Assembly: GCF_000687835.1 (NCBI RefSeq)
Contig: NZ_JHYB01000002.1
Location: 62,001-126,000 of the forward strand
Origin: Haploplasma modicum ATCC 29102
Lineage (GTDB): Bacteria > Bacillota_I > Bacilli_A > Acholeplasmatales > Acholeplasmataceae
Direction of reading: 5' to 3'
Length of the DNA: 64,000 nt
In this document: positions 15,681 through 41,551 of the stretch, one piece after another
How the letters are laid out: each line of letters starts with the position of its first letter
Numbering within the stretch: position 1 is the first letter of the stretch
Notes under the pieces: generated by a model
Database searches by the model: none
The model's input: the letters and a program-made list of their open reading frames with translations, nothing else
What the model was told of the DNA's origin: nothing
Position numbers and translations under genes: made by a program

Positions 15681-15695
15681 GGAAGTTGGTGAAGA

Positions 15696-15971: not shown

Positions 15972-15977
15972 AACGCT

Positions 15978-16244: not shown

Positions 16245-16253
16245 TGATATAAT
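16245..16253 (+). promoter_or_regulatory. Extended -10 promoter of element 1 cargo
   Basis: TGATATAAT, about 40 bp before the ATG at 16294, with a weak TTGTTA further upstream. The bases between 16091 and 16240 hold no gene that I can support. Confidence 0.5.
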
Positions 16254-16293
16254 AAATTCAAATGATACAATTCATCAAGCAAGGTGATTAGTT

Positions 16294-16713
16294 ATGAATA
16301 AAGAAAGAAAACTTTACATTAACTCAGGATATGCACTAGCAACTTATATTGGTTTAAATATAGGTTTAGCTTTTATTGGAATACACTTTAATTTTCCTGG
16401 AAGAGTTAATATTTATTTTTTGTTTATATATACATTAGTTGTTATATTTCTAATATTATCTATAATAAGGTTCTATAAAAATAGAAGTAACATAGAGGTT
16501 ATTAAAGGAATTAGTAAAATCGAATCAACGTTAATAATTATTAATCAAGTATTCCTTTTTATAATTAATTATTTTTGTTCAGAATTAATAATTGCAGATA
16601 ATGAGATTCAGAAAATAAAGGGAATGAATCTTTTTTATTTTACTCCAATGATAATAATATTAATTTATATAAGAATTAATTCTATTAGATTTAAAGTAAA
16701 TAAAATGTTTTAG
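16294..16713 (+). CDS. Small multi-pass membrane protein, unknown, element 1 cargo
   Basis: A 139-residue protein with four predicted membrane segments (roughly residues 10-35, 45-65, 80-100, 108-128) and short polar loops. AAGGTGATTAG precedes the ATG. No family recognised. It is followed after 38 bp by the large gene at 16752 and very likely co-transcribed, so the pair may act together at the membrane. Confidence 0.6.
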   Translation: MNKERKLYINSGYALATYIGLNIGLAFIGIHFNFPGRVNIYFLFIYTLVVIFLILSIIRFYKNRSNIEVIKGISKIESTLIIINQVFLFIINYFCSELIIADNEIQKIKGMNLFYFTPMIIILIYIRINSIRFKVNKMF

Positions 16714-16751
16714 GCATACACTTTAAGTGTTTTATATGAGGGAAATAAAAT

Positions 16752-19133: not shown

Positions 19134-19145
19134 AAGAATAATTAT

Positions 19146-19178
19146 AAGTTCGGTTATTAAAACAACTGAACTTTTCTT
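19146..19178 (+). terminator. Terminator after element 1 cargo
   Basis: AAGTTCGGTT, 8-base loop, AACTGAACTT, then TTCTTTA. One G-T pair in a 10-bp stem. Confidence 0.75.
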
Positions 19179-19189
19179 TATATAAAAAG

Positions 19190-19226
19190 ATGAACGCCAA
19201 ATAGTGTCGCGATGAACCTTTATAAT
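19190..19226 (+). promoter_or_regulatory. 23-bp box R1 with -10 hexamer
   Basis: A 23-bp box starting ATGAACGCC and ending GTGTCGCGA (19190-19212) is followed after 8 bp by TATAAT (19221). The same box occurs at 27150 and 38508 with the same 8-bp spacing. No TTGACA-like -35 exists; the box covers the -35 region. In element 1 no gene follows it: AAGGAG at 19242 is not followed by a usable start, so this looks like a leftover promoter. Confidence 0.65.
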
Positions 19227-19462
19227 ATATACGTAAACAGATAAGGAGCTGTTTAAAATATATTAGTTTAATACTCTGAAACCTAAAACTTTTAACTTGT
19301 TAAAGTTAACCTTAAATGATAAAATAAATATTAGAAAAATACAAATGTGACCTAGAGGCACTTGAAATTCGTCTCAGTCAAAATATTATAATATATTTTT
19401 CGATAAAGCGGGCCAAAATAATTATAAAAAGAAGCTAAAGTTAGTTAGGAAGAGTATAATAA
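19227..19462. other. Non-coding right end of element 1
   Basis: No open frame worth calling. It holds the bipartite motif GTGACC (19347-19352), 12 nt, then AAATTCGTCTCAG ending at 19376, 116 bp before the next uvrB start. In the right end of element 2 the same motif lies 118 bp before uvrB. The rest is AT-rich. Confidence 0.6.
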
Positions 19463-19738
19463 ATGTTTAAATTAGTAACAGATTTTACGCCAAGTGGAGA
19501 TCAACCACAAGCAATCAAAAAGTTAATAGAAAACTTTAATAATGGCATCAATGAGCAAATATTACTTGGTGCGACTGGTACAGGTAAAACTTTTACTATC
19601 GCTAACATTATTAAAGATATGGGCAAGAAGACATTGGTGCTAGCACCTAATAAAACTCTTGCTGGTCAGTTATACGGTGAGCTAAAAGCTCTTTTTCCTA
19701 TGAATCGTGTTGAATACTTCATATCTTATTATGATTAA
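19463..19738 (+). pseudogene. uvrB': uvrB 5' fragment, copy 2 (carried by element 1)
   Basis: Again the first 91 residues of UvrB (Walker A GATGTGKT present), ending YFISYYD and TAA at 19736. It has its own ribosome site AGGAAG. It was presumably the working uvrB 5' end after element 1 alone had integrated, and was cut off when element 2 inserted at the same codon. Many synonymous differences separate it from copies 1 and 3. Confidence 0.88.
19727..19737. other. Candidate attachment core between elements 1 and 2
   Basis: TATTATGATTA, identical in nine or more positions to the cores at 15960 and 41816. It marks the junction of the uvrB copy with the left-end repeat of element 2. Confidence 0.6.
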
Positions 19739-25900: not shown

Positions 25901-27075
25901 ACTCGAACGATATCAAAATTAATATACTAACTATTCCAGATATAAATGAAGAAATGAATAAAGGATATAAAGATGATTATAAGGATTTAATCAAAACAAT
26001 ACATAATGGATTTAATCTAAAGGAGGAAAACAAAGTGAAATTTAACGCAGTTGTGGGCAATCCCCCATATCAAACAGATGCTAAACAACAAATATATACT
26101 GACTTTTATTTACTTTCTAGAGAATTAGCAAATGTAGTAAGTCTTATATTTCCTACTGGTTGGCAAGAACCTAAAAATGCTAATAATCTTGCTAAAATGA
26201 ATAACGAAGAAATCAAAAGAGACAAACAAATAGTATTCGTAGATAACAGATTTAATGTGTTTCCAGGTATTAGTGGTGCAGAATGGACTAATTTCATTTT
26301 ATGGGTTAAAAATTATGATAATAATCTTGATGGCCAACAACTTCTTTATACTGATGGATTAAATGAAGAAGAGGTACTATTCCCAATTAATCAAGAAGAT
26401 ATAGAAAAACCAAAAGAATTAGTTGAACTTTCAAAACTAGTAAATAAAATAGAAAGCAAAAATATGATTGATATGGTATCGTCATTAATGCCATATGGAT
26501 TAAGAACTGACTTTTTAAATGATCCAAGCAAGTATAATTTGCCACCAGTTAGTTTCCTAGAAAACAATTCTACAGATATTAGAATATATGGATTATACGA
26601 GAGAAGACAAACAATTGCATATATTGATACAGATTACGATGTTCCAAGAAAGACAATTTCGTTTGATAAGTATAAAGTATTTATTGGTAAAGCTTGGGGT
26701 AATTGGTCTAAGAATTATTTAGGAGGGGCATACTCTGATATTATTGTTGCAAGACCAAGTGAAATATGTACTGAAAACTTTTTAGAAGTAGGTCCATTCG
26801 ATAATATTGAGATGGCAAACAATATGGCAAAATATTTAATGACTCGATTTGCAAGAGGATTATTATATTTAAACAAATATTCACAGGATAATTCAAAACA
26901 AAAATTTAAAGCAGTGCCTATCCAAACTTTTGAAGAAAGTTGGTGGTCAAAATCAATAAAAGAAATTGATAATCACTTATTTGAAAAATATTCTGTCCCA
27001 TCTAATATAAAAAAATATGTATTTGATAACGTCCAAGAAAAAACAACAGATAATATTTTAATTACAGAAAAATAA
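22993..27075 (+). CDS. GIY-YIG / SF2 helicase / N6-adenine methylase restriction polypeptide
   Basis: A 1360-residue multidomain protein. Residues 5-110 look like a GIY-YIG nuclease (LIYIFRI ... GILKIGETTF). A type III-like SF2 helicase follows: WNAKMRFGKTLT (about 176-187, a Walker A variant), IVDEAHEG (about 285), SGTPF (about 317) and a motif VI region YLQTIFRVQSP. Near residue 1017 FNAVVGNPPYQT gives the NPPY catalytic motif of an N6-adenine methylase (Eco57I type), followed by FPTGWQEP. No motif I precedes the NPPY; this is supplied, I infer, by the upstream gene. Likely role: DNA restriction and modification protecting the element or host. AGAGGTGACTG precedes the ATG. Confidence 0.75.
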   Translation: MILKSFEYNLIYIFRINIPTHKGILKIGETTFTYEGNVLNVKDNTELLNNFANKRIKQYTQTANIKYELLYTTVAIDNKGNIFNDKSVQRILDRSGFTKVSYTGADEWYKCDLSTAINALEARKLNRKSLLSSEITQGMSPIIFREEQEDAIIKTVRKFTTKSKELKKGNDVYLWNAKMRFGKTLTSLEVIKRLGFTKTIIATHRPVVSSGWYEEFNKIFYDEKNYIFGSETYGESFDNLVNLSKKGKNIVYFASMQFLRNAEMFGGNNSKTNNIFDIDWDFLIVDEAHEGILTNLGDNVINELRSSKEDTKTLFLSGTPFNLLSESSKYEFEKDDVFTWDYIAEQHAKINWEANNFGDHNPYAGLPRLNIFTYDLTNVFTGNNYLDLLDSAFNFREFFRVWTGVYEKDNPRPTQVVTPGEFVYKEDVKRFLDLLVDPSTNYPFSTREYRDNFRHTLWMLPGVKEARALSKLLKEHKVFGQDEFIIVNVAGDGDEEEKYEDAKLKVDKAIGPNPDLTRTITLSCGKLTTGVTIKPWTAALMLSGSSNTSASSYLQTIFRVQSPANINGRIKTNSYVFDFAPDRTLKMIAQASQLSIKAGNRDEFEKRDVMREFLNFCPVIGIQGSSVKEYDVNNLLVQLKQATIDSVVRNGFDDVGLYNDGMLLSLTNDDISLFNGLNSIIKASDRSKSIREIVLNKQGLDNEKHDEKELRKLNKKPKKELTPEEKEALALYRKQQKDRLNAIKLLRAISIRIPLLIYGADVPIDEEIDIEKFSSLVDDNSWVEFMPRGVTKDVFNDFKRFFDNEVFVEAGKRIRKITQLSDSLPVLERVDSISELFSTFKNPDRETVLTPWSVVNKHLGETIGGHLFFENDYYTKIFIDTNTGPKLKIKNKELFKVMYDRDSRVLDVNSKTGLYPLFVATSIYLEYKHKGIMKDTSNLWEKILSENIFIITKTEMAALITKRTLIGYKNSNDIKINILTIPDINEEMNKGYKDDYKDLIKTIHNGFNLKEENKVKFNAVVGNPPYQTDAKQQIYTDFYLLSRELANVVSLIFPTGWQEPKNANNLAKMNNEEIKRDKQIVFVDNRFNVFPGISGAEWTNFILWVKNYDNNLDGQQLLYTDGLNEEEVLFPINQEDIEKPKELVELSKLVNKIESKNMIDMVSSLMPYGLRTDFLNDPSKYNLPPVSFLENNSTDIRIYGLYERRQTIAYIDTDYDVPRKTISFDKYKVFIGKAWGNWSKNYLGGAYSDIIVARPSEICTENFLEVGPFDNIEMANNMAKYLMTRFARGLLYLNKYSQDNSKQKFKAVPIQTFEESWWSKSIKEIDNHLFEKYSVPSNIKKYVFDNVQEKTTDNILITEK
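26035..27075 (+). CDS. Possible internal translation of the methylase domain
   Basis: Inside the large restriction gene, AAAGGAGG (26019-26026) is followed 8 nt later by an in-frame GTG at 26035, giving a 346-residue product that begins MKFNAVVGNPPYQ, just at the methylase domain edge. Stand-alone methylase subunits commonly start this way. The Shine-Dalgarno match may be chance, since it encodes Lys-Glu-Glu in an AT-rich gene, so this is a hypothesis about an alternative product, not a separate gene call. Confidence 0.3.
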   Translation: MKFNAVVGNPPYQTDAKQQIYTDFYLLSRELANVVSLIFPTGWQEPKNANNLAKMNNEEIKRDKQIVFVDNRFNVFPGISGAEWTNFILWVKNYDNNLDGQQLLYTDGLNEEEVLFPINQEDIEKPKELVELSKLVNKIESKNMIDMVSSLMPYGLRTDFLNDPSKYNLPPVSFLENNSTDIRIYGLYERRQTIAYIDTDYDVPRKTISFDKYKVFIGKAWGNWSKNYLGGAYSDIIVARPSEICTENFLEVGPFDNIEMANNMAKYLMTRFARGLLYLNKYSQDNSKQKFKAVPIQTFEESWWSKSIKEIDNHLFEKYSVPSNIKKYVFDNVQEKTTDNILITEK

Positions 27076-27415: not shown

Positions 27416-27844
27416 ATGCAACAAGTTAAAGTAGATTTTACGCTAAGAGCAGTACAAAGAAGAGGTATGAATCCTAGATATGAATTGAATGTTATTTTAA
27501 AAGACATTAATGCAGACCAAAAAACATTTGGTAAAAATTACTCAAACATTGAGTTACAACCAGCAAGACCTTTAGAAATGGGAGATTATCAATTAATTTT
27601 AAATGAAAGAGGATTAGGTGATCTTAAACAAAACTCCAAAGGATTTAGAATTACCGATGCTGATGCAGAAGTAGGGATTGGTACTTATGCAGAAACTGGT
27701 GACAAGTATTATTTTGTAAGAGTTGAACTTTGCAAGGATTTATACAGAACATGTTATTTAAGTGAATCACAAATTAGAAACTTAAAATATGTTGATTTAG
27801 GTTACAAATTTAAAGAAGAAGATATTGATCCAGTCGTTGAATAA
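27416..27844 (+). CDS. Soluble phage-like protein, possible single-stranded-DNA-binding protein
   Basis: A 142-residue soluble protein, beta-rich in appearance, with evenly spread charged residues and an acidic tail (KEEDIDPVVE). No membrane segment or enzyme motif. In filamentous phages a small ssDNA-binding protein precedes the coat genes, and acidic tails are common among SSBs, so position and shape suggest that role; I see no OB-fold signature to prove it. AGAGGTG precedes the ATG. Confidence 0.45.
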   Translation: MQQVKVDFTLRAVQRRGMNPRYELNVILKDINADQKTFGKNYSNIELQPARPLEMGDYQLILNERGLGDLKQNSKGFRITDADAEVGIGTYAETGDKYYFVRVELCKDLYRTCYLSESQIRNLKYVDLGYKFKEEDIDPVVE

Positions 27845-27847
27845 TAT

Positions 27848-28015
27848 ATGATAACAATATTTCTATTGATAAAATCCTTTTTCTTGATTTTGACTAGAAT
27901 CTTATTGGTTATATTATCAACGATTGGTTGGGGGTTGGCGATGATACTTAAGGTCATCGCTAGCCCATTTAATAGAATATTTAGAAGAGGAGAAAATAAT
28001 GAAATTAAAGATTAA
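27848..28015 (+). CDS. Short membrane protein, candidate major coat protein
   Basis: A 55-residue frame: short start, one or two hydrophobic stretches (residues 4-38, including FFLILT and LLVILSTIGWGLAMIL), then a basic part NRIFRRG. The order hydrophobic core then basic C-terminus is that of inovirus major coat proteins, where the basic end faces the DNA. It begins 3 bp after the previous stop and overlaps the next gene by 17 bp, so it is probably translated by coupling; no good ribosome site of its own. It has no signal peptide, as in coat proteins of some mollicute filamentous phages. Confidence 0.45.
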   Translation: MITIFLLIKSFFLILTRILLVILSTIGWGLAMILKVIASPFNRIFRRGENNEIKD

Positions 28016-29510
28016 AGTTTTAACATCATTTATACTTTTAATTTTTGCATTTATCTTTGTTCCTTTGGTGTCAGCTGCAAGCTTTCATGATGAAATATAT
28101 GATGAAGTAAGTCAACATGTTAGAGATGGTAATTTGCCCTCTTGGCATAAAAGTTATGCGCTAATACCTGAGTATCAAACATTTTATACAAAAATGGTAA
28201 GGTTGATGAGTAGTACCCATGGAGTTAGTTATTTGGCTTCCTTTGAAAAAGAAGATCTAATTTCACTGCTTCAACAATATAAATCTGAAATAGATGAAGT
28301 TTGGGAAGACATGATCGAAAACTTAGACTTAGAATTAACTAATTTAGCTCCTGCACAAATTGTGGGACTTTATTGGGAAACCAATGTTAATGAATATGCC
28401 TCTTATTTATACTTTATCTGGACTAGTGAATATATTCCAAATGAATTTAATACTCTAAGAGAAATTAAAATTAATGGCAAGCAGTATAAACAATTCGAAA
28501 CGCAACAAGATATAACGAATTATACACCAACTTGGGATACAACAGATAGTCTTCATTTTCCTAATTCGAACATTTCTGTTCATAGGACTGCTATTGGAGG
28601 ATTTGTCTTAGGTGAGCAATTTGGAGTCCCCTTAACTCAAAAATACCAAATAGATGGATTTAAGGGTGGAATAGAAGTTGAAGAGTTTTATGGAAGTGTT
28701 CCTGATGAAAAGAAATACGAAACAATGTCCAGTCATTCAGTAACATTTGACTTAGGATTTGTTCCAAAACAAGATGGAAAAAGAGCATTCCAATTAGTTA
28801 CTAAAGCTTATGAGATTTTAAAAGATGTTGAAGCTCAAAGTTATCACAGTGTTGCTTTCGGTGGATATGTTCATAATGTATATTTTAATACAACAATTGA
28901 TATTGATCGTATTTATCGTGTAGACGTTAACTACACCCTAACAAGCGATAATAAAAATTGGTATGAATTTTGGTTAGATACAGATGAATATAATGTTACT
29001 AAATCTTTAACAACTGAAAGAAAGTCGAGTGGATATTTTGGATTATTTAATTATCAAGGATTTGAAGAAGGTAATTATAAATCAAACGTAAAAGAATCTA
29101 AATATTATAAATATAGATTAACTCTTAACTATGATGATGAAAATTGGAAAATATTTCATCCAAATCCAGAAGCCGAAGGAAATTATAAGAGATTTAAAGA
29201 ATTTAAAGTTTTAAGGTTGAATTATGTAGTCGATGATGTTGTCTATGATGTACCAGTAAAAATGGATACAGTAGATAGTGAAACATTACATATTTTAGAT
29301 AGAGATCTAATATTAGACACTGAATCAACAGGATGGAAGGCCAAAGAAACAATTTATGATTTCTTTGACCAGGTTAAAGAAAAGTTTGAGGCATCAAAAA
29401 AAACCCTGATTATTATAGCTTCAGTTATTGTTGGATTAATACTTTTCTATATTGTTTATAAAATTATTAGATTTATAAACATAATATTTTCAACAAAAGA
29501 AAGGAAATAA
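27999..29510 (+). CDS. Secreted, C-terminally anchored protein, candidate phage minor coat protein
   Basis: 503 residues. Signal peptide (basic MKLKIK, hydrophobic core, cleavage near VSAAS, about residue 27), a long extracellular part with no enzyme motif, and one C-terminal membrane helix (TLIIIASVIVGLILFYIVY, about 468-486) followed by basic residues. This is the layout of phage minor coat/adsorption proteins such as pIII of filamentous phages. GAGGAG precedes the ATG; the next gene starts 3 bp after the stop. The family is not recognised. Confidence 0.55.
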   Translation: MKLKIKVLTSFILLIFAFIFVPLVSAASFHDEIYDEVSQHVRDGNLPSWHKSYALIPEYQTFYTKMVRLMSSTHGVSYLASFEKEDLISLLQQYKSEIDEVWEDMIENLDLELTNLAPAQIVGLYWETNVNEYASYLYFIWTSEYIPNEFNTLREIKINGKQYKQFETQQDITNYTPTWDTTDSLHFPNSNISVHRTAIGGFVLGEQFGVPLTQKYQIDGFKGGIEVEEFYGSVPDEKKYETMSSHSVTFDLGFVPKQDGKRAFQLVTKAYEILKDVEAQSYHSVAFGGYVHNVYFNTTIDIDRIYRVDVNYTLTSDNKNWYEFWLDTDEYNVTKSLTTERKSSGYFGLFNYQGFEEGNYKSNVKESKYYKYRLTLNYDDENWKIFHPNPEAEGNYKRFKEFKVLRLNYVVDDVVYDVPVKMDTVDSETLHILDRDLILDTESTGWKAKETIYDFFDQVKEKFEASKKTLIIIASVIVGLILFYIVYKIIRFINIIFSTKERK

Positions 29511-29512
29511 AT

Positions 29513-32032
29513 ATGAAAAAAATAACTATATTTTCATTTTTAACTTTATTAGCGTTTGTTTTATTGGGAACACAAACAACATATGCTAATACAAACAACC
29601 AAATTAATATAAACCACAATTTACCTAATGTTCCACAACAATTGGCAAAATATGATCATAATGGTTTTCAATATACTTTATCTACTAGTGGTGATACCTT
29701 AATGGCATCTTTAATTACTGAAAATCCTGAAGAAATTGAATATATAGTGGTATACAACAATATTATGGATTTTCCTGTTATGTACACAAGTATCACTGAC
29801 TTAAGTAGTTATACTAATTTAAAGGATGTAATTATATTTGAGCAACCACGTCATTTTGGAGGTTTATATAATTTTGAGGGAACAATACAAAATTTATATT
29901 TAGGTCATGGTAATCATCTAGATGAATCGTTTGAGAATTTAAATATTACAAATTATCATTTTGTAACACCGTATTTTAACTATTATACAGAATTTGATAA
30001 ATCAAATGGTAAAGCAAAGATTGATGAAATGAATTTTTCTAATGGATATTATTATGATTTTACCAAAGATGTTTTTGAAAAAGGTCTTGCTGATTACAAC
30101 ACAAGATCAAATAAGAAACATAATTTTATATTAAAAAGCAACTCGACACTGAAGTATACAATAGAAAGTTTTTTACCAAGTAAAGATTTTCAATTAAGAT
30201 ATTCAAAAGCCGGTGTTGATTATGAAGTAGACACATACATGGAAAAACATAAGCTATACAAAAGTTATCTTGATATGAAAGCTAATATTATAAAAATTGA
30301 TCAAAGAGTTAAATCATTTCATGGTGCTAAGCTTATTAGAGGTATAGAACCATTAAGAAACATTGAATTTAAAACATTGGATTTAAGAGGATTAGAAGGT
30401 CTAACTCAACTTCAAAATATTAAAGCAGAAACTTTATATTTGTCTAATAAAGGTGATACTTTTAATAACAATCAAACAATATATGTAGATGACTTATATT
30501 TTGTTGCAGATGAATTAGCGACACCAGTTGGTAATGTTTTTGGCTCTTATCCTAATATTAAAAATGTTCATATCCCTAATGATAACAAAGAACTTTTTCA
30601 AACAATAATTGATAGTGATGATTTTTCATCAAAAATCAAATATTATACTAACCTTATTCCAACATATAATATCTTTGAATTTACTAATGATGAAGGAGAT
30701 AAATTATATAAGAGTTCTGATGATTATATTGACATAGACACTATTTTAAATAGTATCGAAGAATTTGAAACATTAACAGGTGTAGATTTAGAAAAGTTTT
30801 ATGTCAATCAAATATTAGAGTTATATAACTTTCCGATTTATGCTGAGAACAGCGGAAGATCAGTAGAAGCATATCCAATAATTCCTTCTACAATACATTT
30901 AAATATTGGTATGGATCCAAGAACTGTTTTAGAAACTATAGTAGAAGATATGGTTGCAGGAGAATATGAAACAGTAGAAATAACATTTGAAGATGAAGAC
31001 TTTGAACTAGATAAAGATGGTGATTTAGTAATAAAGGTAACAATAAATGAGAGATTATCTCAAATTTCAAGAGTAGATATTTTATATTATGATTTCAAAG
31101 AAGTTGTATCATTTATTAAATTTTATGAATCAATGTTTGTTTTAACGAATATTTCTGATACTAAAACACTAGAAGACTTGATTGACATTTATAATGAACA
31201 TGTTGAAGATCCACGAGGAGAAGCAGTAGTCAATAAAAATCATGATCTTAAAATTGAAAAGAAAGTATTAAGCAGTTATGAAAATGATTGGGATTCTAAT
31301 GTTATAAGATTATTTGTTACCAATGACAACATTGGAGAAAAACAAGTCTACTATGAATTACCAGACTCATTTGTATTTACTGAAAACATTGATATTGAAA
31401 AAGCAATAACAGTACTTCATAAAGAAATGTTATTTAAAGATGATTTACTATCAAATGAAGCTTACATATTAGAAATCACAGTTAAATCAGCAGTTATTAA
31501 TCTAAAGGGTGAATTTCCAAATGAGAAAGAATTTGATTTAGATATCCCTTATACAGTTATTGAATCTGAAATAGGTGAGTATCTAATAGCAAAACACAAT
31601 AACTCTAATACATTTATTTTATATGTAGAAGCCGGAACGATAAAAGAAGATGTAAATGCACAATCAATATTAGATTCTTATTTCGAGAATAAACAACTTG
31701 AAGATTATATTGATCAGTACAAGTTACCAATTACATTAACAAGAAAAGGTGAATTAACAAAAACAATCGAATTAGAAGAAACAGAAGAAGAATTCACAGT
31801 TAAAGTTGTAGTAACAAATAAAGATTTAAATCCAGAAGGATTTGAAGATCCTTTTAAAACAAAAAAAGATGAGTTTGGATCAAGTAGTATATTAGACCAA
31901 ATAAAAGATAAATTTGCAGAAAATGATGCATTAAAATGGTCATCAATAGTAGTATCATCATTATTAGGAATTGGATTAATTTATTTAGTATACTTATTCA
32001 TTAGAAAATTTATTAAGTGGATAAGAAAATAA
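29513..32032 (+). CDS. Large secreted, C-terminally anchored protein, candidate adsorption protein
   Basis: 839 residues with a signal peptide (cleavage near TYANT, about residue 26) and a C-terminal membrane helix (SSIVVSSLLGIGLIYLVYLF) with a basic end. The N-terminal half has irregular leucine-rich-like stretches (LKTLDLRGLEGLTQLQNI, then AETLYLSNK), the second half repeated acidic segments. Together with its neighbour it would form the virion end that binds the host in a filamentous phage. GAAAGGAAAT precedes the ATG. A surface adhesin of a non-phage element is the alternative. Confidence 0.55.
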   Translation: MKKITIFSFLTLLAFVLLGTQTTYANTNNQININHNLPNVPQQLAKYDHNGFQYTLSTSGDTLMASLITENPEEIEYIVVYNNIMDFPVMYTSITDLSSYTNLKDVIIFEQPRHFGGLYNFEGTIQNLYLGHGNHLDESFENLNITNYHFVTPYFNYYTEFDKSNGKAKIDEMNFSNGYYYDFTKDVFEKGLADYNTRSNKKHNFILKSNSTLKYTIESFLPSKDFQLRYSKAGVDYEVDTYMEKHKLYKSYLDMKANIIKIDQRVKSFHGAKLIRGIEPLRNIEFKTLDLRGLEGLTQLQNIKAETLYLSNKGDTFNNNQTIYVDDLYFVADELATPVGNVFGSYPNIKNVHIPNDNKELFQTIIDSDDFSSKIKYYTNLIPTYNIFEFTNDEGDKLYKSSDDYIDIDTILNSIEEFETLTGVDLEKFYVNQILELYNFPIYAENSGRSVEAYPIIPSTIHLNIGMDPRTVLETIVEDMVAGEYETVEITFEDEDFELDKDGDLVIKVTINERLSQISRVDILYYDFKEVVSFIKFYESMFVLTNISDTKTLEDLIDIYNEHVEDPRGEAVVNKNHDLKIEKKVLSSYENDWDSNVIRLFVTNDNIGEKQVYYELPDSFVFTENIDIEKAITVLHKEMLFKDDLLSNEAYILEITVKSAVINLKGEFPNEKEFDLDIPYTVIESEIGEYLIAKHNNSNTFILYVEAGTIKEDVNAQSILDSYFENKQLEDYIDQYKLPITLTRKGELTKTIELEETEEEFTVKVVVTNKDLNPEGFEDPFKTKKDEFGSSSILDQIKDKFAENDALKWSSIVVSSLLGIGLIYLVYLFIRKFIKWIRK

Positions 32033-33942
32033 TATTTAAAAGGCTAGGCATAGCACTATTCGTAGTGCTATGTACTATGCTTTTAATATTCAATCTCAAT
32101 GTATTTAAAGAAGCCACCGATAGATTCTTAGAAATTTTTGATTTCAAAGAATTGAAAAATTTCTTCCAATTATATGTGGATAAAAACACTAAAATATTCG
32201 AAGATTTTTCAGATAGTATTTCAGATAGCATCGATAATATCCAAGAAGTGTTAAGTGATAAAGAACAGATAAAAGAAGCACTTTTAACGCTACTATTAAA
32301 CTTCATTACTCTATTCTTTAATTTTTTAAATTACTTCTTAAATATAGGTGTTAATATTCTGTTTTTATTAATGATCTTCTTTAACGAAACTTTTAATGCT
32401 ACTAATTTAAATATTAAGTATTCTAAGAGTTCTTTGTTATGGATAAAGTTTCAAAAGTTTTTATCTAAAGTAAAATCAATCTTAAAAAACATTTATAAGA
32501 AAATAGTTAAATGGCTTAATGAACGTAAAAGAAAGATTTTATTAATTTTTTTAATCGTTCTGTTTTCTAAAGGTGTCGTATATCAAGTTTTAGTAGAAAT
32601 AATAATATTTTTAGTTACATATATTTCTGCTGTGTTTAGATTTGAAACATATATAGCAATAATGGATATAGCTAAGGCAATCTTAATATTCTTATTACCT
32701 TATATCGAATCACTGTCTAAAGGAACAATTATTGTTATACTAATTTTTATAATATTCATTAGAGCATTTAACAGAGCTAATTACAAACTAAAAAAGAATC
32801 ATGAAAGATTAAAAATATTTGCTAAAGATAGACTTACTCAAACAACATTTATAAATGGTGCTCCTGGTGTGGGGAAAACATTACTTAACGTATCTTTATC
32901 CTTAGCTAGTGAAGAGAATTTTATTGATGAATTGGAATTAATGATGCATGAATATCAAGCTAAACATCCATATTTAAATTTTGCTAATATTAGAACTAAA
33001 GATATTGATCAAGAGCATCAAGAATATATTGATATTTACAATTTTTTACTGAACAGATCGAGTTATTTAATTTCTAACTTTGCAATCTATAGTCCTTACT
33101 TTGATGAGTACTCAAAAATTTTTGATTTTAATTTTATGCGTAAAAATATAAAGTCAGATATTTATGCTTTAGAAGAATATACAATAATTTCGATTTCAGA
33201 ACTAGATAAAGAATACAATTCTCATGATGATATGAAAATTGTTGGTGCAGATGGTGCAGCAACATTTTTCTCAACGGTATCACACGATTTAAAAAGAACT
33301 GCCAAAATCTTTTGTGATTATCAGTTAAAAGACCAGGTACCATTACGTATTAGAGGAAACTCCGAATACTTTTTAACTGTTAAATCACGAAAAAAGAAAT
33401 ATCCAGTTCTATTATATTTATATTATTATCCATTTATTTTGATGGATAAATTAGTATCAAGATTAATATTCAAATATGAAACAAAGAGAAAAACGATTAA
33501 TAAAAACACAAAAAGAAAATCCTTATCAAAATATAAAAGAAATGATTATACATTAGTCTATGGGATTCTACGATCGTTACAGTTTCAATTAAATAAGATT
33601 AAAAATTTCTTTGATAAATACTGGTACTTTAGAATAACCAGTATTTTATCAGAGGAAGATGGCGGCAAAGGAAAAAGTGTTGCAATCAATATTAACTTAT
33701 GTGATTTAAAGTTAGATGATCAGCAGCTATATGATTCAACATTTTTATCTCATGCTTATGAACAAAAGAAAAATACTAAGTTTAAAGATTTAGATAAGTT
33801 TACTAGCATAACCCCATCAATCGAAGAATTAACAAAATGTAATTCCAGATTTTATAACAAAATTAATGGAATAAAGAATGAAGAAACTGAAAAGAAAAAT
33901 AACAGAGGTACTAATGATGATGATGACTTTATTACAATATGA
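32017..33942 (+). CDS. Membrane ATPase, candidate phage assembly protein (pI/Zot-like)
   Basis: 641 residues. Membrane segments near residues 8-27, 95-125, 172-205 and 222-250 precede a cytoplasmic ATPase with Walker A GAPGVGKT (about 281-288) and a Walker B-like IISISELDKE (about 395). Zot/pI-type assembly ATPases of filamentous phages have the ATPase first and the membrane helix after it; here the order is reversed, which is unusual. A coupling-protein-like ATPase is an alternative, but no FtsK/VirD4 motif is seen. Start GTG 32017 overlaps the previous gene by 16 bp and has a poor ribosome site, so it may be downstream. Confidence 0.55.
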   Translation: MDKKIIFKRLGIALFVVLCTMLLIFNLNVFKEATDRFLEIFDFKELKNFFQLYVDKNTKIFEDFSDSISDSIDNIQEVLSDKEQIKEALLTLLLNFITLFFNFLNYFLNIGVNILFLLMIFFNETFNATNLNIKYSKSSLLWIKFQKFLSKVKSILKNIYKKIVKWLNERKRKILLIFLIVLFSKGVVYQVLVEIIIFLVTYISAVFRFETYIAIMDIAKAILIFLLPYIESLSKGTIIVILIFIIFIRAFNRANYKLKKNHERLKIFAKDRLTQTTFINGAPGVGKTLLNVSLSLASEENFIDELELMMHEYQAKHPYLNFANIRTKDIDQEHQEYIDIYNFLLNRSSYLISNFAIYSPYFDEYSKIFDFNFMRKNIKSDIYALEEYTIISISELDKEYNSHDDMKIVGADGAATFFSTVSHDLKRTAKIFCDYQLKDQVPLRIRGNSEYFLTVKSRKKKYPVLLYLYYYPFILMDKLVSRLIFKYETKRKTINKNTKRKSLSKYKRNDYTLVYGILRSLQFQLNKIKNFFDKYWYFRITSILSEEDGGKGKSVAININLCDLKLDDQQLYDSTFLSHAYEQKKNTKFKDLDKFTSITPSIEELTKCNSRFYNKINGIKNEETEKKNNRGTNDDDDFITI

Positions 33943-33958
33943 ATTATAAACATATCCA

Positions 33959-34041
33959 GTTTGATTTCCAAAGTTTAGTATCCGTTGCGGAACGTGGCTA
34001 TACTAATAGCCACGTTATCGCATACTAAACTGACGTCAAAC
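33959..34041. other. Nested inverted repeats, candidate single-strand origin / packaging signal
   Basis: Three nested perfect inverted pairs share one centre: GTTTGA (33959) with TCAAAC (34036); AGTTTAGTAT (33972) with ATACTAAACT (34022); and an 11-bp innermost stem AACGTGGCTAT with ATAGCCACGTT around the 4-base loop ACTA (34002-34005). It has no T run and lies in the 150-bp non-coding gap between the ATPase and the Rep gene. In filamentous phages and rolling-circle replicons this is where the replication origin and the packaging hairpin lie. Confidence 0.65.
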
Positions 34042-34095
34042 GTAATGTTTAATCATTATCTAAGTACTTAATTGAAAATGAAAGTAGAAGGTATA

Positions 34096-35226
34096 ATGAC
34101 TAATTTAGATATTAAAACAGGTGTACATATTGTGATTGATTATTTCTCAGCTACATTTCCTCTAATAGTACACGAAAATGATTATGAACTTAAAGTTATT
34201 GAGGATGTAATAGAAATAATTAGTAAATTTTTAGGATACGACAAATCTAACATAACAAAAGAAGAATATGCACAAAATAGATTTGAGTATCAATACTTAA
34301 TTGGATCAGATATTGTATTAAGAATGAATGGTCCAAGATTGAAATCTGGATATAAGTCCTGCTCTATAGAACTTAAAGGATCTGGATGTAGAGAGTTTGA
34401 AAATAACAATCCCGATAAAACATGGATTGATTTCTTTGAATTCTTTTTAGTTAGATTAAATGCATCACCCTCAAGATTTGATATAGCTATTGATGATTAT
34501 GATGGAAGTCATTTAACTATTGATGAAATAAAGGCCAAATTAGATAAGGGGTTCTATACTACTAATTTTAGAGATAAAGATTATACTCTTTACAATTCCA
34601 AAAAAGGAATGACTCTGCAATTCGGAAGTAGAATATCAACTCAAATGTTGGTTATTTATGATAAAAAAAGAGAACAACTATCACAAGGAATAGCTGTTCC
34701 GGAAACGTATTGGACAAGATTTGAGATGAGATATTACAAAGAAAAGTCTTATAACGTATGTATGAATATTTTAAAAGGTGGTTCATCTAAATATAAAGAA
34801 TATGTATTAGGTTTACTGTATGAAATGTTAGATATAAAAGAAGACAACAATTTCAGTAAATCTAATATTTACAAAGCTGATACAGATGAGCGATGGTTAT
34901 CGTTTTTAGGTGAAGTGAAAAAGGCGAAAATAGTTAAATATAAAATAAGAAAAAGCTCATATGAATCATATTATAAATGGGCTAGTCCACATGCCGCCTT
35001 TTTCTTCCTAAGTATATATACTCATAGCAATTTTGATCTAAATTCAACATTAATTGAAATTGTAGAAAACGGCATATCATTAATGGAAGATTTGAACAAT
35101 AATAGGCTTAAAAAAATAAATCAATTTTTGAGTGAATCTTCACTGAAGAAAACAAATTTAGTTGAGTTAAACAACAAAATAAAAGAATTAGAAAAATTTA
35201 TAGAAATAAAGGAGTTGCCATTTTAA
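34096..35226 (+). CDS. Replication initiation protein, Rep_trans family
   Basis: About 376 residues. Typical patterns of the Rep_trans family (RstA of CTX-type phages, plasmid Rep proteins, Tn916 Orf20): IDYFSATFP at the N-terminus, RFDIAIDDYDGSHLT near residue 130, LQFGS then MLVIYDKKREQ, and TRFEMRYYK near 210. These enzymes nick one strand to start rolling-circle replication, and in some elements start transfer. I chose ATG 34096 with AGAAGG upstream; an upstream ATG at 34078 is possible. It lies 55 bp behind the nested inverted repeats, a likely nick site, and overlaps the next start by one base. Confidence 0.8.
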   Translation: MTNLDIKTGVHIVIDYFSATFPLIVHENDYELKVIEDVIEIISKFLGYDKSNITKEEYAQNRFEYQYLIGSDIVLRMNGPRLKSGYKSCSIELKGSGCREFENNNPDKTWIDFFEFFLVRLNASPSRFDIAIDDYDGSHLTIDEIKAKLDKGFYTTNFRDKDYTLYNSKKGMTLQFGSRISTQMLVIYDKKREQLSQGIAVPETYWTRFEMRYYKEKSYNVCMNILKGGSSKYKEYVLGLLYEMLDIKEDNNFSKSNIYKADTDERWLSFLGEVKKAKIVKYKIRKSSYESYYKWASPHAAFFFLSIYTHSNFDLNSTLIEIVENGISLMEDLNNNRLKKINQFLSESSLKKTNLVELNNKIKELEKFIEIKELPF

Positions 35227-35492
35227 TGATAAAACATTTAAATACGAGGTTAGGTTTTGATAGTTTAAAAAACTATCAAGTGCCTCAGTTGCACAAAATT
35301 ATTACGAGTTATGTAGTAGACAACCCTGAATATGTTGAAAGCATAAAGAAATATATAAACAATATAGACTTTATACTAGAACATTTGTATAATTCATTTA
35401 ATGGGTCAATAGAATATACTGAAAAAGCTGTTTTAGATCTGATATTAGATTTAATAAATAATACAGATAAAAGAGGTGCTTTTGATGGATAA
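35226..35492 (+). CDS. Small helical protein, unknown, in the replication operon
   Basis: 88 residues, mostly helical, acidic, no motif recognised. It starts at the stop of rep (overlap of one base, GGAGTTG upstream) and its end overlaps the helicase start by 8 bp, so the three are co-translated and probably act in replication together. Confidence 0.6.
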   Translation: MIKHLNTRLGFDSLKNYQVPQLHKIITSYVVDNPEYVESIKKYINNIDFILEHLYNSFNGSIEYTEKAVLDLILDLINNTDKRGAFDG

Positions 35493-37329
35493 ATTAAACA
35501 ATAAGCAATATGTAGCAGTCACAGACAATTCTAAAAATACTTTAGTTCTGGCTGGTGCAGGAACAGGAAAAACAAGAGTACTAATAAATAGAATAATTCA
35601 CTTATTAAATCAGGGAGTTAATCCTAATAATATTTTAGCTTTTACCTTTACAAATAAAGCAACAAATGAAATGAAATATCGTATATCAAATTCTGGCAAA
35701 AATTTTGAGGGAATAACCATTTCAACTTTTCACAGTTATTGTTTCTCATATTTGGTTGAATTACCAGAATACATTGGATATGAAAAAGGATTTAATATCA
35801 TAGATGATAATGAAAAATTAAAAATAGTAAAAAAAATTATAGTAGATAATGAACTTAAGATTTTAGATCGAGAGGCAATGAAATATATCTCTAACATAAA
35901 AAACCATACTGAGATTAATTATGAAAACATTAATGAAGCTATGATAACTAATTTTATATTTTATGAATATCAAAAAACTTTAATAAATAATCAAAAAATG
36001 GATTTAGATGATTTACAATATTATTTTCTCAAATTATTAAAAACAAACGATGGATTAGCAGAAGCAATTCAAAACACATCAGAATATATTTTAGTTGATG
36101 AGTTCCAGGATACTAATGTTATTCAATATGAAATATTAGATATTTTATCAAAAAAACACAATAATTTATTTCTTGTTGGTGATCAAGATCAGTGCATTTA
36201 TACATTTAGAGGAAGTAACCTAAGTAATATTGATAATTTTACTGAAAATAAAGATCCTAAAATCATTACGTTAGAAACTAATTACAGATCAAACAAACAT
36301 ATCCTAAATTTAGCTAACGATTTAATTAAAAGTAATGTAGGTAGAATTGAGAAGAATTTATATCCAACTAAATACGCTAGAGACTACCAAGTTATATATT
36401 CTGAATTAGCTAGCGATTACGATGAAGCCAAATATATTTCAACTTTAATATTAAAGTTACTTGAAAAAGATTATAAAGAAAATGATATTTGCATCTTGTT
36501 CAGATCGCATAATATATCTTCTAAAATTGAAACAGAATTTTTAAAGGCCAAAATACCTTATCACTTATTAGGAAGGAATAAATTTTTTGATCATAGTGAA
36601 ATAAAAACTTTAATTAATTATTATTTCTTTTTAAAAAATAAAGATGACATATCTTTATCAGAAATATTTAATAAGCCTACTAGAAACATAGGAGAAATAA
36701 CTTTTAGCAGGCTTGCATTAGAGGCAGAGAAACAAAAAAAGTCGATTTATAAAGTTATGGAAGAAAGTTCAAATGAGGATTTGAAAAAATTTGTAAATCT
36801 GATTGAATCATTAGATTTAAAATTTACACAAAACGATCCAAGTGAATTTGTAGATTTATTATTAGAAATAATTGAATATGAAACTTTTATTTCTAAACAA
36901 GAGAAAGCTAAAGAGAAATTACAAAGAGTCTATGAATTTAAAAACATGTTTTCTAACATCAATTCAAATATAGATTATAGAGATGCTACTATTGAATTTT
37001 TAAACCAAATTTATCTATATGAAAAGGAGGAAGAAAAAGAAGACGCGGTAAAAATGATGACAATTCATCAAGCAAAAGGATTAGAGTTTAAAGTAGTTAT
37101 TATTGCTGGATGTAATGAAGGTGTATTACCATCGTATAAAGCTTCCAGAATTGATTTAGAAGAAGAAAGACGAATATTTTATGTGGCTATAACTAGAGCA
37201 AAAGAGAGACTCTATTTGCTAAGTTCTAAGCAAAGGACGTTGTATGGTAAAAGACGAAGATACAAACCTTCATCATTCCTAAGTGATATTGATTTAGATT
37301 TAATGTATTTCGATGTACAAATTTTTTAA
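35485..37329 (+). CDS. UvrD/PcrA/Rep-type DNA helicase
   Basis: 614-residue superfamily 1 helicase. Motifs in order: NNKQYVAV and LAGAGTGKTRV (Walker A, about 22-31), AFTFTNKAT, STFHSYC, LVDEFQDTN (Walker B), VGDQDQCIYTFRGS, LETNYRS, TIHQAKGLEF and FYVAITRAKERLYL. It is shorter than chromosomal PcrA (about 720-740) because the C-terminal extension is absent. M13-type phages borrow the host Rep helicase; this element encodes its own beside its Rep protein. ATG 35485 follows AGAGGTG. Confidence 0.88.
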   Translation: MDKLNNKQYVAVTDNSKNTLVLAGAGTGKTRVLINRIIHLLNQGVNPNNILAFTFTNKATNEMKYRISNSGKNFEGITISTFHSYCFSYLVELPEYIGYEKGFNIIDDNEKLKIVKKIIVDNELKILDREAMKYISNIKNHTEINYENINEAMITNFIFYEYQKTLINNQKMDLDDLQYYFLKLLKTNDGLAEAIQNTSEYILVDEFQDTNVIQYEILDILSKKHNNLFLVGDQDQCIYTFRGSNLSNIDNFTENKDPKIITLETNYRSNKHILNLANDLIKSNVGRIEKNLYPTKYARDYQVIYSELASDYDEAKYISTLILKLLEKDYKENDICILFRSHNISSKIETEFLKAKIPYHLLGRNKFFDHSEIKTLINYYFFLKNKDDISLSEIFNKPTRNIGEITFSRLALEAEKQKKSIYKVMEESSNEDLKKFVNLIESLDLKFTQNDPSEFVDLLLEIIEYETFISKQEKAKEKLQRVYEFKNMFSNINSNIDYRDATIEFLNQIYLYEKEEEKEDAVKMMTIHQAKGLEFKVVIIAGCNEGVLPSYKASRIDLEEERRIFYVAITRAKERLYLLSSKQRTLYGKRRRYKPSSFLSDIDLDLMYFDVQIF

Positions 37330-38544: not shown

Positions 38545-38565
38545 TTAAGTACGGAGGTGGACAAA

Positions 38566-38748
38566 ATGATACAAAAGAAGATATATGAAGCCAAAGATAT
38601 ACAGAAGATGCTTGGTTTAGGAAAAAATAAAACTTATGAATTCTTAGAAGAAGTTTATAAGAATAAGAAACCTTTCATGGTTATAAAAATTGGTAATCAA
38701 TATAGAGTATTTAAAGAATCATTTGATAAATGGATCAGCACTCTATAA
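38566..38748 (+). CDS. xis: Excisionase-type HTH protein
   Basis: 60 residues with the small winged-HTH pattern of excisionases: YEAKDIQKMLGLGKNKTYEFL, then PFMVIKIGNQYRVFKESFDKWI. It binds DNA and helps the integrase to excise the element. ATG 38566 is chosen because CGGAGGTGG lies upstream. It is followed by the integrase gene after 19 bp. Confidence 0.78.
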   Translation: MIQKKIYEAKDIQKMLGLGKNKTYEFLEEVYKNKKPFMVIKIGNQYRVFKESFDKWISTL

Positions 38749-38767: not shown

Positions 38768-39931
38768 ATGAATAAAAGAAAAACACAAACAGGAGTATTC
38801 CAATATAGAGGTTCCTGGTATCACAGAACAAAGGAACTTCAAATTAACGGTAAAACTAAATATGGTAAAATTGGTGGGTTTGAGTCTTTTGAAGATGCAT
38901 TAAAAGCTTATGAAGAAAATAATGAAAAATTTGAATTAGATAAAAAAGCTTATATATTACACACTACTAATTCGGAAATATATTTAATATCTTATTTAAA
39001 ATATTGGTTTGAAAGTATTTATAAAATTAGAGTTAAATCTTCAACAGCAATGGTCGCTTCATATTTGATATATGACATTATTATACCTTCAATACAACCA
39101 GACATAAAAATTAAATTAGTATCAGAAAATTATATAAATAATTTATTAGATAAAATCAATCCAATAACAAAATCAGCATCATCAGAAGCAAGAAAAATTT
39201 TATTTCAAGTTTTTAAAGATGCTAAAGTTGATGGGTTTATATTAAACAATCCAGTTAAAAATTCTAAAAAATATCATTATGATAAAAATACAATCACAAT
39301 ACTAACTGACGATGAGACTAAAAGATTATTAAAAATTTCAAGTACAGATAACTGGTACTTAGAAGTTTTATTAGCTTTATTTTTAGGTTTAAGAAAAGGT
39401 GAAATTAGAGGTTTGAAATTTTCAGATTTCAATTTTCAAGAAAAAACAGTACATATCCAGAGGCAACTAGTAGATGAACATGTATTAGCTGTTGGTGAGT
39501 TTGCAACTAAACAAATTAAAAACATTGAAAGAAGCCCTAAATCTAATAAAGGTATTAGGAAACTTTTTGTTCCTGATGTAATTATTACTGAATTGTTAAA
39601 TAGGAAGAAAGAAATAGAAGAGTTTAAAAGGAGTTCTAGCTTCACTGATCATAATTATGTATCAGTTCAAGAAAATGGTAAACCTCGCACTCCTTCAGCT
39701 TTTAATAGTTATTTAAATAGAACTTGCAGGAGAAATGGTATTAGGAGAGTAACACCCCATGGACTTAGGCATATGTTTGCAACATTACTATTAGAAAATG
39801 GAATTGATCTTTCAACAATTTCAGCAATGCTTGGCCATGAGTCAATTAGAACAACATTCATGATTTATACCGATATGATTAACGAACAAGAAAAAATATC
39901 TGATTTTATCAATGAATTACACGAAATATAG
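38768..39931 (+). CDS. Tyrosine recombinase / integrase 1
   Basis: 387 residues. N-terminal arm-binding part with FQYRGSWYHR and GKIGGFESFEDA (Tn916 integrase-like), SAM-like core-binding domain, and catalytic domain with Arg 209 (LRKGEIRGL), HGLRH (His 331, Arg 334), His 357 (GHESIRTT) and nucleophile Tyr 367 (MIYTDM). All catalytic residues are present. AAAGGAGTAGG precedes the ATG. It is coupled to xis and to the second integrase, which starts 14 bp after its stop. Most likely directs recombination at uvrB. Confidence 0.9.
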   Translation: MNKRKTQTGVFQYRGSWYHRTKELQINGKTKYGKIGGFESFEDALKAYEENNEKFELDKKAYILHTTNSEIYLISYLKYWFESIYKIRVKSSTAMVASYLIYDIIIPSIQPDIKIKLVSENYINNLLDKINPITKSASSEARKILFQVFKDAKVDGFILNNPVKNSKKYHYDKNTITILTDDETKRLLKISSTDNWYLEVLLALFLGLRKGEIRGLKFSDFNFQEKTVHIQRQLVDEHVLAVGEFATKQIKNIERSPKSNKGIRKLFVPDVIITELLNRKKEIEEFKRSSSFTDHNYVSVQENGKPRTPSAFNSYLNRTCRRNGIRRVTPHGLRHMFATLLLENGIDLSTISAMLGHESIRTTFMIYTDMINEQEKISDFINELHEI

Positions 39932-39944
39932 GGGGAATGTTTAT

Positions 39945-41249
39945 ATGGAATACAATAAAGATAGATATATAGATTTTAAAGTATTTAATATAATGAAAAT
40001 TAAAAACAAATATGGTTTTAGATTTGTTTTAATATATTCTAATGGCGAACAATCAACAAAGCAAAAGTCTGGATTTAAAACAATAAAAGAAGCTGAAGCA
40101 ACAAGAAACAAAGTTATAACAGATTTAAATAATGGGTTTTTTTTGGAAGATAATTCATTAACATATATTAGCTTTTTAAATGATTGGTTAGAAAAAGATA
40201 TTAAATTAAGAACTGCAAGCAACACATATATAACCTTTAAAAACATTGTACAAAAATATATAGGTCCAACAATTGGAAATATAAGGCTACAAGAAATAGA
40301 AAGAAATCATATTGTGAAGGTTGTTAATTATGCATCTGGCAAATATAAATCAATGTCAAAAATGGTAAAAACAGTATTAGATATTTCTTTAGATTATGCA
40401 GTTTCTAATCAACTATTAACTATAAATATATCCAGAAATGTAATTATAACTAATGGAAATAAAAACAAAGGAAAAGTAAAAACTAGAAATATAGATATAA
40501 CGAAAACATTAACATTAGATCAAATCAAATTATTGATTAAAAACAGCATGGAAACACCAATTAAATTTTATATAATGTTTTCTGGTTTGATGGGTTTAAG
40601 GATTAGTGAAATAAGAGGCCTTAAATATTCAGATATAAATTATCAAAACAGAACAATAAAAATTCAAAGACAATTAGGTAGAGATATTAAGAACGACGAG
40701 AATATTAATGTAGGGAAAGTGACTAAACAAGAAATACCATTAAAAACTTTTTCAAGTCAACGTGAATTAATAATTCCGGACATTCTATTCGAAGAAATTC
40801 TTAAGGAAAGAAGAAAGTATGAAAAAAATAGAAGCAGAAGAATTAATGATAAACACAATCCTTTTTATGATGGAGATTTTATTTGTTCATCGACATATGG
40901 TAATCCTAGAAGTTCAACATTTCACTATAAGTATTTTAAAGATTTATTAGTTCTTAGTAATTTACCTAATATTAGATTTCATGATTTGAGAGCAAGTTAT
41001 ACAACGATATTAATAAAAAACAAATTTAGTCCCAAAGCAGTATCTAAAATGTTGGGTCATGCAACAGAAATAATATCCATTGATCATTACACAGATTCTA
41101 AAGAGTTAATTAAAGCTGTAGGTAAAGATATTAATTTCATAGTAGATAAATATACATTGAATAATAATGAAAAAGAAATAGAAGAAATACATGTTGATAA
41201 AAATGTAATAAATGCAATTGTTAATATGGAATTAAATCTTTTGAAATGA
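39945..41249 (+). CDS. Tyrosine recombinase / integrase 2
   Basis: 434 residues, distantly similar to integrase 1 and also with complete active site: Arg 219 (GLRISEIRGL), HDLR (His 346, Arg 349), GHA (His 372) and Tyr 382 (DHYTDS). A C-terminal extension (about 400-434) is absent from integrase 1. I chose ATG 39945 behind AGGGGGAATG. Two adjacent full-length integrases are unusual; they may act together at one site, or serve different reactions (integration and accretion). Confidence 0.88.
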   Translation: MEYNKDRYIDFKVFNIMKIKNKYGFRFVLIYSNGEQSTKQKSGFKTIKEAEATRNKVITDLNNGFFLEDNSLTYISFLNDWLEKDIKLRTASNTYITFKNIVQKYIGPTIGNIRLQEIERNHIVKVVNYASGKYKSMSKMVKTVLDISLDYAVSNQLLTINISRNVIITNGNKNKGKVKTRNIDITKTLTLDQIKLLIKNSMETPIKFYIMFSGLMGLRISEIRGLKYSDINYQNRTIKIQRQLGRDIKNDENINVGKVTKQEIPLKTFSSQRELIIPDILFEEILKERRKYEKNRSRRINDKHNPFYDGDFICSSTYGNPRSSTFHYKYFKDLLVLSNLPNIRFHDLRASYTTILIKNKFSPKAVSKMLGHATEIISIDHYTDSKELIKAVGKDINFIVDKYTLNNNEKEIEEIHVDKNVINAIVNMELNLLK

Positions 41250-41275: not shown

Positions 41276-41551
41276 TTTATTAAAACCTTATGTCATTCAC
41301 TTGTGATTGACGAGTAAAAGTGATAAAATAATTGATAATAAAACAATGTTAAATAGTATCGTTTTATCTTTAATTTTCCTTTGTTTTTTAATCTGTTTTA
41401 GCTAGTGTTTAAGAGTTTTATTACAAAATATATGTGACCAAAATTCGTCTCACAGCAAAAAAACTACTAAATTCAATCAAAAACAGTTAGGGAAATCCAT
41501 CTTTATTTTAAAGATTACAGTATAAAAAACCTATTGATTAGGAGTGTTTCA
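41276..41551. other. Non-coding right end of element 2 with bipartite motif
   Basis: No gene. At 41434 GTGACC is followed after one base by AAATTCGTCTCA (to 41452). In the other three copies the two halves are 12 nt apart, so this copy is 11 bp, about one helical turn, shorter. The motif lies 118 bp before the uvrB ATG and in the same orientation as the left-end copies. The rest is AT-rich and should contain the uvrB promoter carried by the element. Confidence 0.55.

What the first reader, a model, noticed from the sequence alone, without database searches (positions are those of the whole stretch)
33959..34041. Triple nested inverted repeat between ATPase and rep genes
Seen: pairs of 6, 10 and 11 bp share one centre, the innermost with a 4-base loop; no T run, so not a terminator. 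Inference: single-strand origin, Rep nick site or packaging signal.
Basis: partly seen in the sequence, partly recalled or inferred. Interest (0 to 1): 0.7.

Follow-up and report, generated by a model that had tools for sequence, protein, structure and literature searches.

The report
Rolling-circle origin shared with toxin cassettes
The nested DNA hairpin looks like the spot where a filamentous-phage-like element starts copying itself, and near-identical copies sit in unrelated toxin-gene cassettes of the same and related bacteria, which suggests (untested) that those cassettes hitch a ride on the element.

Summary
Confirmed. At 33947-34051, between a membrane ATPase gene and a rep gene, lie nested inverted repeats far beyond chance. 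The inner hairpin AACGTGGCTAT-ACTA-ATAGCCACGTT carries the CT'AA nick motif of Rep_trans/MOBT initiators in its loop, and the next gene is a Rep_trans protein with the catalytic residues intact. It is therefore most likely the double-strand origin (Rep nick site; predicted nick 34004/34005, + strand). The stems covary in relatives: sequence changes, pairing stays. The upstream ATPase is Zot/pI-like, and the synteny (small TM protein, signal-peptide/TM proteins, ATPase, origin, Rep, UvrD) resembles an inovirus; no conjugation gene was detected. Unexpectedly, a covariance model finds the same hairpin away from any Rep: mostly 266-314 bp upstream, same strand, of large serine recombinases, often in Rhs-tip cassettes, including at least three copies in this genome. 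These copies resemble the Rep-linked origin of the same host family. The origin itself is a new variant of a known kind; the untested inference of Rep-less satellite cassettes with a captured origin is the novel part.

The parts
33991..34016 (+). Inner nick hairpin, 11-bp stem, loop ACTA; predicted Rep nick CT'AA between 34004 and 34005
   Evidence: motif as in PMC9371924; nick position inferred
33972..34031 (+). Outer arms (AGTTTAGTAT / ATACTAAACT) enclosing a 4-bp middle stem and the inner hairpin
   Evidence: covariation; arm-swap test
33947..34051 (+). Outermost layers: 6 bp 33959-33964/34036-34041 and 7 bp 33947-33953/34045-34051
   Evidence: native arms beat permuted arms
34096..35226 (+). 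Rep_trans (PF02486) initiator with Rol_Rep_N domain; probable catalytic tyrosine Y188
32017..33942 (+). Membrane ATPase, Zot/pI-like P-loop domain at the C-terminal end
   Evidence: FtsK control
29513..32032 (+). Protein with apparent signal peptide and C-terminal TM segment (coat/adsorption-like by position)
   Evidence: function inferred
27999..29510 (+). Protein with apparent signal peptide and C-terminal TM segment, 53% identical in G049
   Evidence: function inferred
27848..28015 (+). 55-aa single-TM protein, candidate major coat protein
   Evidence: function inferred
27416..27844 (+). 142-aa protein, candidate single-strand-binding protein by position
   Evidence: function inferred
35226..35492 (+). 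88-aa protein, position conserved after rep
35476..37329 (+). UvrD/PcrA-type helicase
38557..38748 (+). Excisionase-like HTH protein (weak match)
38768..41249 (+). Two overlapping tyrosine integrase genes (38768-39931 and 39912-41249)
19462..19737 (+). Truncated 5' copy of uvrB, likely left border of the element
41551..41826 (+). 5' part of intact uvrB, likely right border of the element

Best explanation
[quoted passage not shown] The Rep_trans protein encoded just downstream recognises the nested repeat, helped by extrusion of the hairpin under negative supercoiling. It nicks the + strand at CT'AA in the loop (34004/34005) through its tyrosine, and leading-strand synthesis is then driven with a UvrD/PcrA-type helicase, perhaps the element's own. 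Shown here: the structure, its covariation, the motif, its position, the Rep identity and its catalytic residues. Inferred: the nick itself, the nicked strand, Rep binding to the outer arms, and ssDNA export by the Zot-like ATPase. Related hairpins in Rep-less serine-recombinase cassettes are probably the same cis signal, captured or shared.
For: Structure z -9.4. Loop motif CT'AA as in MOBT and Rep_trans nick sites (PMC9371924). Rep_trans gene 55 bp beyond the structure with Y188, K190, D129, D133 and E210 invariant in 15 relatives. Hairpin upstream of rep in relatives. Stems covary: 10 of 16 pairs changed on both sides, 0/500 shuffles; native arms beat all swaps in 12 of 14 loci. Known inoviruses have a CTAA-loop hairpin between Zot and Rep (Dulem virus 72) or at the start of rep (fSU1). 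Zot-like ATPase: control.
Against: No nick has been mapped. Two Rep-linked loci (L019, L021) lack the outer arms, so these are not essential in all relatives. Some relatives have GTAA in place of CTAA. The ATPase fold match to Zot is only slightly ahead of RecA-like proteins.
Confidence: 0.9

Rival explanations
1. It is the oriT of an integrative conjugative or mobilizable element: the protein is a MOBT-type relaxase and the ATPase a coupling protein, and DNA leaves by conjugation.
For: MOBT relaxases share the nick motif (PMC9371924). The Rep matches NCBIfam MobT weakly (E 1.2e-16, 60.6 bits against a cut-off of 600). The gene order ATPase, nick site, relaxase, plus xis and integrases, recalls ICEs. 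TcpA is among the fold matches (Z 10.6).
Against: No conjugation gene in the proteins scanned. The ATPase profile fits Zot (probability 80), not FtsK (probability 1.9). The Rep starts directly at its catalytic part, with no N-terminal HTH in sequence. An origin and an oriT use the same kind of nick, so this rival concerns the exit route, not the nick.
Confidence: 0.15
2. The nested repeat is mainly a packaging or export signal on the single strand, with the nick site only at its tip.
For: Pairing extends to about 105 nt and is kept while sequence changes. Ff phages use an imperfect hairpin as packaging signal (established knowledge). The Zot-like ATPase lies next to it.
Against: In Inoviridae relatives only a short nick hairpin was seen. 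Covariation equally fits a binding dyad or cruciform.
Confidence: 0.2
3. The hairpin is a recombination (attachment) site for integrases or serine recombinases, which would explain copies next to recombinase genes.
For: Hairpins sit 266-314 bp from serine recombinase genes on the same strand. Some IMEs integrate into oriT (PMC7563843).
Against: Cassette boundaries lie at the rhs core/tip junction, where the P(V/I)MY codons recur after each recombinase gene, so the hairpin is internal. The window's element seems bounded by uvrB copies.
Confidence: 0.07
4. It is an RNA element controlling rep expression.
For: Transcription of the operon would include it, and it folds stably.
Against: No Rfam family, no T-run, both strands fold equally well, and the loop carries a known DNA nick motif. 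Copies exist without rep downstream.
Confidence: 0.03

Closest known systems
pT181/pC221 plasmid dso (Rep_trans; ICRII nick hairpin, ICRIII binding repeat)
   Same: CT'AA-type nick in the loop of a GC-rich hairpin, Rep_trans initiator, hairpin extrusion expected (PMC5775427, PMC5703833)
   Different: There the binding repeat lies beside the nick hairpin and inside rep; here further repeats enclose it and it lies upstream of rep
oriT of ICESt3/Tn916/ICEBs1 (MOBT)
   Same: Same nick motif in a hairpin loop; related PF02486 protein (PMC9371924)
   Different: In ICESt3 the binding repeat IR2 is 68 bp downstream of IR1 and an HTH domain binds it; no HTH and no conjugation genes were found here
Origins of Inoviridae with Rep_trans initiators (Dulem virus 72, Xanthomonas phage fSU1)
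   Same: CTAA-loop hairpin between Zot and Rep (Dulem 72) or at the start of rep (fSU1)
   Different: Short single hairpins; the window's is a multi-layer structure, and its ATPase carries a long N-terminal membrane region
Origin mimicry: staphylococcal oriT mimics; filamentous-phage satellites such as RS1
   Same: An element without the initiator carries a matching origin and is moved by a helper (PMC8136818); PMC11389934 describes RS1 and cites an inovirus plasmid satellite
   Different: Here the candidate riders are chromosomal serine-recombinase cassettes that swap Rhs tips; no such case was found in the papers searched

Membership tests
Rep_trans double-strand origin | CT'AA nick motif in the loop of a GC-rich hairpin | tested here: met
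   in relatives; a subset has GTAA
Rep_trans double-strand origin | Adjacent Rep_trans gene with catalytic tyrosine and acidic residues | tested here: met
Rep_trans double-strand origin | Stem pairing conserved by compensatory change | tested here: met
Rep_trans double-strand origin | Site-specific nick and covalent Rep adduct | not testable with these tools
   needs biochemistry
MOBT conjugative element (ICESt3/Tn916/ICEBs1) | FtsK-type coupling protein | tested here: not met
   no FtsK_SpoIIIE match for the ATPase; FtsK profile probability 1.9
MOBT conjugative element (ICESt3/Tn916/ICEBs1) | Other conjugation genes (VirB4-like and the rest) | tested here: not met
   no Pfam or NCBIfam match in the proteins scanned; very divergent ones could be missed
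MOBT conjugative element (ICESt3/Tn916/ICEBs1) | MobT relaxase above the family cut-off | tested here: not met
   60.6 bits against 600
Inoviridae-like (filamentous phage) element | pI/Zot morphogenesis ATPase | tested here: inconclusive
   no PF05707 match, but profile E 1.5e-5 and best fold match Zot, narrowly
Inoviridae-like (filamentous phage) element | Small major coat protein and signal-peptide/TM minor coat proteins in order before the ATPase | tested here: inconclusive
   gene order and sizes fit; no homology found
Inoviridae-like (filamentous phage) element | Filamentous virions with circular ssDNA | not testable with these tools
   needs culture
Satellite/hitcher with mimic origin | Helper-like origin in an element without the initiator | tested here: met
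   no Rep match near the cassette hairpins
Satellite/hitcher with mimic origin | Origin matches that of the co-resident or same-lineage helper | tested here: inconclusive
   18 of 18 nearest in the same family, but permutation P 0.04 and cassettes are related
Satellite/hitcher with mimic origin | Helper-dependent replication or transfer | not testable with these tools
   needs experiments

The most novel reading that the evidence does not exclude
Chromosomal cassettes that swap Rhs C-terminal tips by a large serine recombinase carry, without any rep gene, the nested rolling-circle origin of a filamentous-phage-like helper. They act as natural phagemid-like satellites: the helper's Rep nicks the cassette's origin, the single strand is exported by the helper's machinery, and the recombinase inserts it at the core/tip junction of an rhs gene in a new host.
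Probability: 0.35. Interest if true: 0.88.

Novelty: new variant of a known kind. Interest (0 to 1): 0.66.

Why it matters
The origin gives a testable cis signal for a poorly known group of rolling-circle elements in small-genome bacteria. The shared hairpin links two systems not known to be linked: a Rep-bearing, filamentous-phage-like element and recombinase cassettes that exchange Rhs tips. If the cassettes are moved by the helper, it would give a vehicle for horizontal exchange of polymorphic-toxin tips, which a review searched here attributes to recombination with standalone cassettes (PMC3482391).

Tried and rejected
Terminator or riboswitch: no T-run, no Rfam match. tRNA attachment site: no tRNA in the window. 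The GTDB contig scan with the single Rep protein and the IMG/VR scan with the ATPase alignment gave no relatives; whole-genome search worked. The first ATPase model with 7 sequences was poor (pLDDT 50); the ATPase domain alone with 18 sequences worked. Acholeplasma phage L2: its 37.2 kDa protein appears among fold matches, but its profile comparison with the window ATPase is weak (probability 11.5), so no kinship is claimed. Pairing in fixed windows 30-60 nt out from the inner hairpin was no better than swapped arms; the outermost layer only shows when the windows are anchored on the outer stem. The 23-bp repeat at 19190, 27150 and 38508 was first taken for an att site, but two of its copies lie just upstream of genes and it looks more like an operator or promoter. 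Family-label permutation for helper/cassette matching is only P = 0.04, because helpers are few and cassettes related.

Full report
Observation. The centres are offset by up to 3.5 nt because of a bulge on the 5' side. Single-strand folding of 33945-34060 gives -27.4 and -28.1 kcal/mol on the two strands, z -9.4 and -8.3, with no shuffle as good. No comparable nested hairpin occurs elsewhere in the window or in 30 Markov-simulated windows. No Rfam family matches.

What lies beside it. The downstream gene is a Rep_trans (PF02486, 2.8e-26) plus Rol_Rep_N protein, with a match to the solved RepSTK1 structure (name of 4cij from PMC6499999). Across 15 relatives Y188, K190, D129, D133 and E210 are invariant; I read these as the counterparts of the tyrosine, lysine and acidic residues tested by mutation in RelSt3 (PMC6499999), which is an inference from motif order. 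The loop reads ACTA with CT'AA at 34003-34006. CT'AA in the loop of a GC-rich hairpin is the nick site of MOBT relaxases and of Rep_trans plasmid initiators (PMC9371924). In pC221, nicking depends on negative supercoiling and on the nick hairpin (PMC5775427).

Relatives. Of 120 related genomes 18 carry the rep gene. Most have a hairpin with TAA in the loop upstream of it; in the 14 loci examined in detail it is 55-100 bp away. Most loops read CTAA; a subset (L009, L010, L024 and probably L011 and L020) reads GTAA. On an 11-sequence alignment 10 of 16 pairs have changes on both sides and 86.9% of cells pair; the covariation score is 0.468 against 0.158 in shuffles (0/500) and at most 0.149 in slid controls. 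A test that needs no alignment, pairing each 5' flank with every other locus's 3' flank, puts the native pair ahead of all swaps in 12 of 14 loci over 60 nt. The outermost layer, anchored on the outer stem, beat all 100,000 permutations in 12 loci although its sequence is not conserved. L019 and L021 lack the outer arms. So in most of the family the whole nested structure, not only the nick hairpin, appears to be kept. Whether as a dyad for a dimeric Rep, a cruciform or a signal on the exported strand cannot be told here.

The element. The upstream ATPase has no significant Pfam match. Its domain profile aligns with the Zot/pI profile of Inoviridae over the Walker B region (E 1.5e-5, probability 80), against probability 1.9 for an FtsK profile. 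A model with pLDDT 82 has the Neisseria Zot N-terminal domain as top PDB match, Z 12.0 at 3.6 A over 165 residues, but RAD51/RecA proteins follow at 10-12 and TcpA at 10.6, so the fold alone does not decide. Inoviridae Zot proteins are among the best BFVD matches. The highest-ranked phage match of Rep is an inovirus, Dulem virus 68 (record). In Dulem virus 72 a CTAA-loop hairpin lies between Zot and Rep. The order 142-aa protein, 55-aa TM protein, signal/TM proteins, ATPase, origin, Rep, 88-aa protein, UvrD is conserved in G049 and largely in G099; the part up to the ATPase is also seen in G095. Filamentous phage CTX-phi needs UvrD (PMC4439123), and pT181-type replication needs PcrA (PMC5703833). 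No conjugation gene was found in the proteins scanned. I therefore read the element as inovirus-like with moderate confidence (about 0.7) and as a rolling-circle element with high confidence. It seems inserted in uvrB: truncated 5' copies of uvrB lie at 15695 and 19462 and an intact gene starts at about 41551.

Copies without Rep. An exact search for TATACTAATAGCC in the host genome gave five hits against none for the reversed control. The four extra ones lie in arrays of Rhs-like tips, putative immunity genes and large serine recombinases at two contig ends, three of them with the nested arms; the fourth is cut by the contig end. A covariance model finds those three at E 2e-14 to 6e-11; they were in its training set, so this is not independent. 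It also finds hits in 21 of 120 relatives, many in genomes with no match to this Rep (G026, G028, G041, G048, G051, G084, G101, G105), and those were not in the training set. In 12 measured cases the hairpin is on the same strand as a serine recombinase gene, 11 of them 266-314 bp upstream and one 86 bp from a partial match. Rhs cores lie nearby in cassettes of families f1 and f5 and in G112. Downstream of the recombinase gene the next tip resumes at the codons for P(V/I)MY found at the intact core/tip junction, so the cassette boundary is there and the hairpin is internal. The cassette hairpins resemble the Rep-linked hairpin of the same host family in 18 of 18 cases, but with few helpers and related cassettes this is only P = 0.04.

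Interpretation. The simplest account is that the cassettes carry a captured or shared origin that a Rep_trans helper can nick in trans, as oriT mimics do on staphylococcal plasmids (PMC8136818). Satellites of filamentous phages are known: PMC11389934 describes RS1 and cites an inovirus plasmid satellite, whose own paper is not held. I found no report of Rhs-tip cassettes with such an origin, within a library that lacks most subscription papers. Cleavage, mobilization and packaging are all untested, and the cassettes may instead have another, unrecognised partner.

Verdict. Observation confirmed; 'Rep nick site' supported. The origin is a new variant of a known kind (enclosing rather than adjacent repeats). 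The linked Rep-less cassettes are the surprising part and deserve the nicking test.

Noticed in passing
window 15695-19737 and 41551-41826: Three copies of the 5' part of uvrB mark what look like two tandem elements in uvrB: a 3.8-kb one (about 15970-19737) without integrase and the 22-kb one with the hairpin. Each seems to bring its own uvrB 5' end.
   Followed up: partly
window 19190, 27150, 38508: A 23-bp repeat ATGAACGCCAAATAGTGTCGCGA, two of whose copies lie just upstream of genes (27234 and 38557); possibly a shared operator.
   Followed up: no
window 38768-41249: Two tyrosine integrase genes overlap by 20 bp, both with full catalytic domains by Pfam.
   Followed up: no
window 22993-27075: A 1360-aa protein with ResIII helicase and Eco57I methylase domains, probably a restriction-modification or defence cargo of the element; similar genes lie beside the ATPase in G095.
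   Followed up: no
L009, L010, L011, L020, L024 (rep-linked hairpins): The loop reads GTAA instead of CTAA in a subset of relatives, so the supposedly conserved CT'AA may vary before the nick.
   Followed up: partly
L160, L161, L164 (family f3): Here the hairpin precedes two tandem serine recombinase genes and no Rhs core was found, so other cargoes may use the same arrangement; L158 has one recombinase before its contig ends.
   Followed up: partly
G000:C3:238812 end and G000:C6:97543 end (L120, L121): Both Rhs arrays stop at contig ends, so the host genome may hold more cassettes and hairpins than the assembly shows.
   Followed up: no
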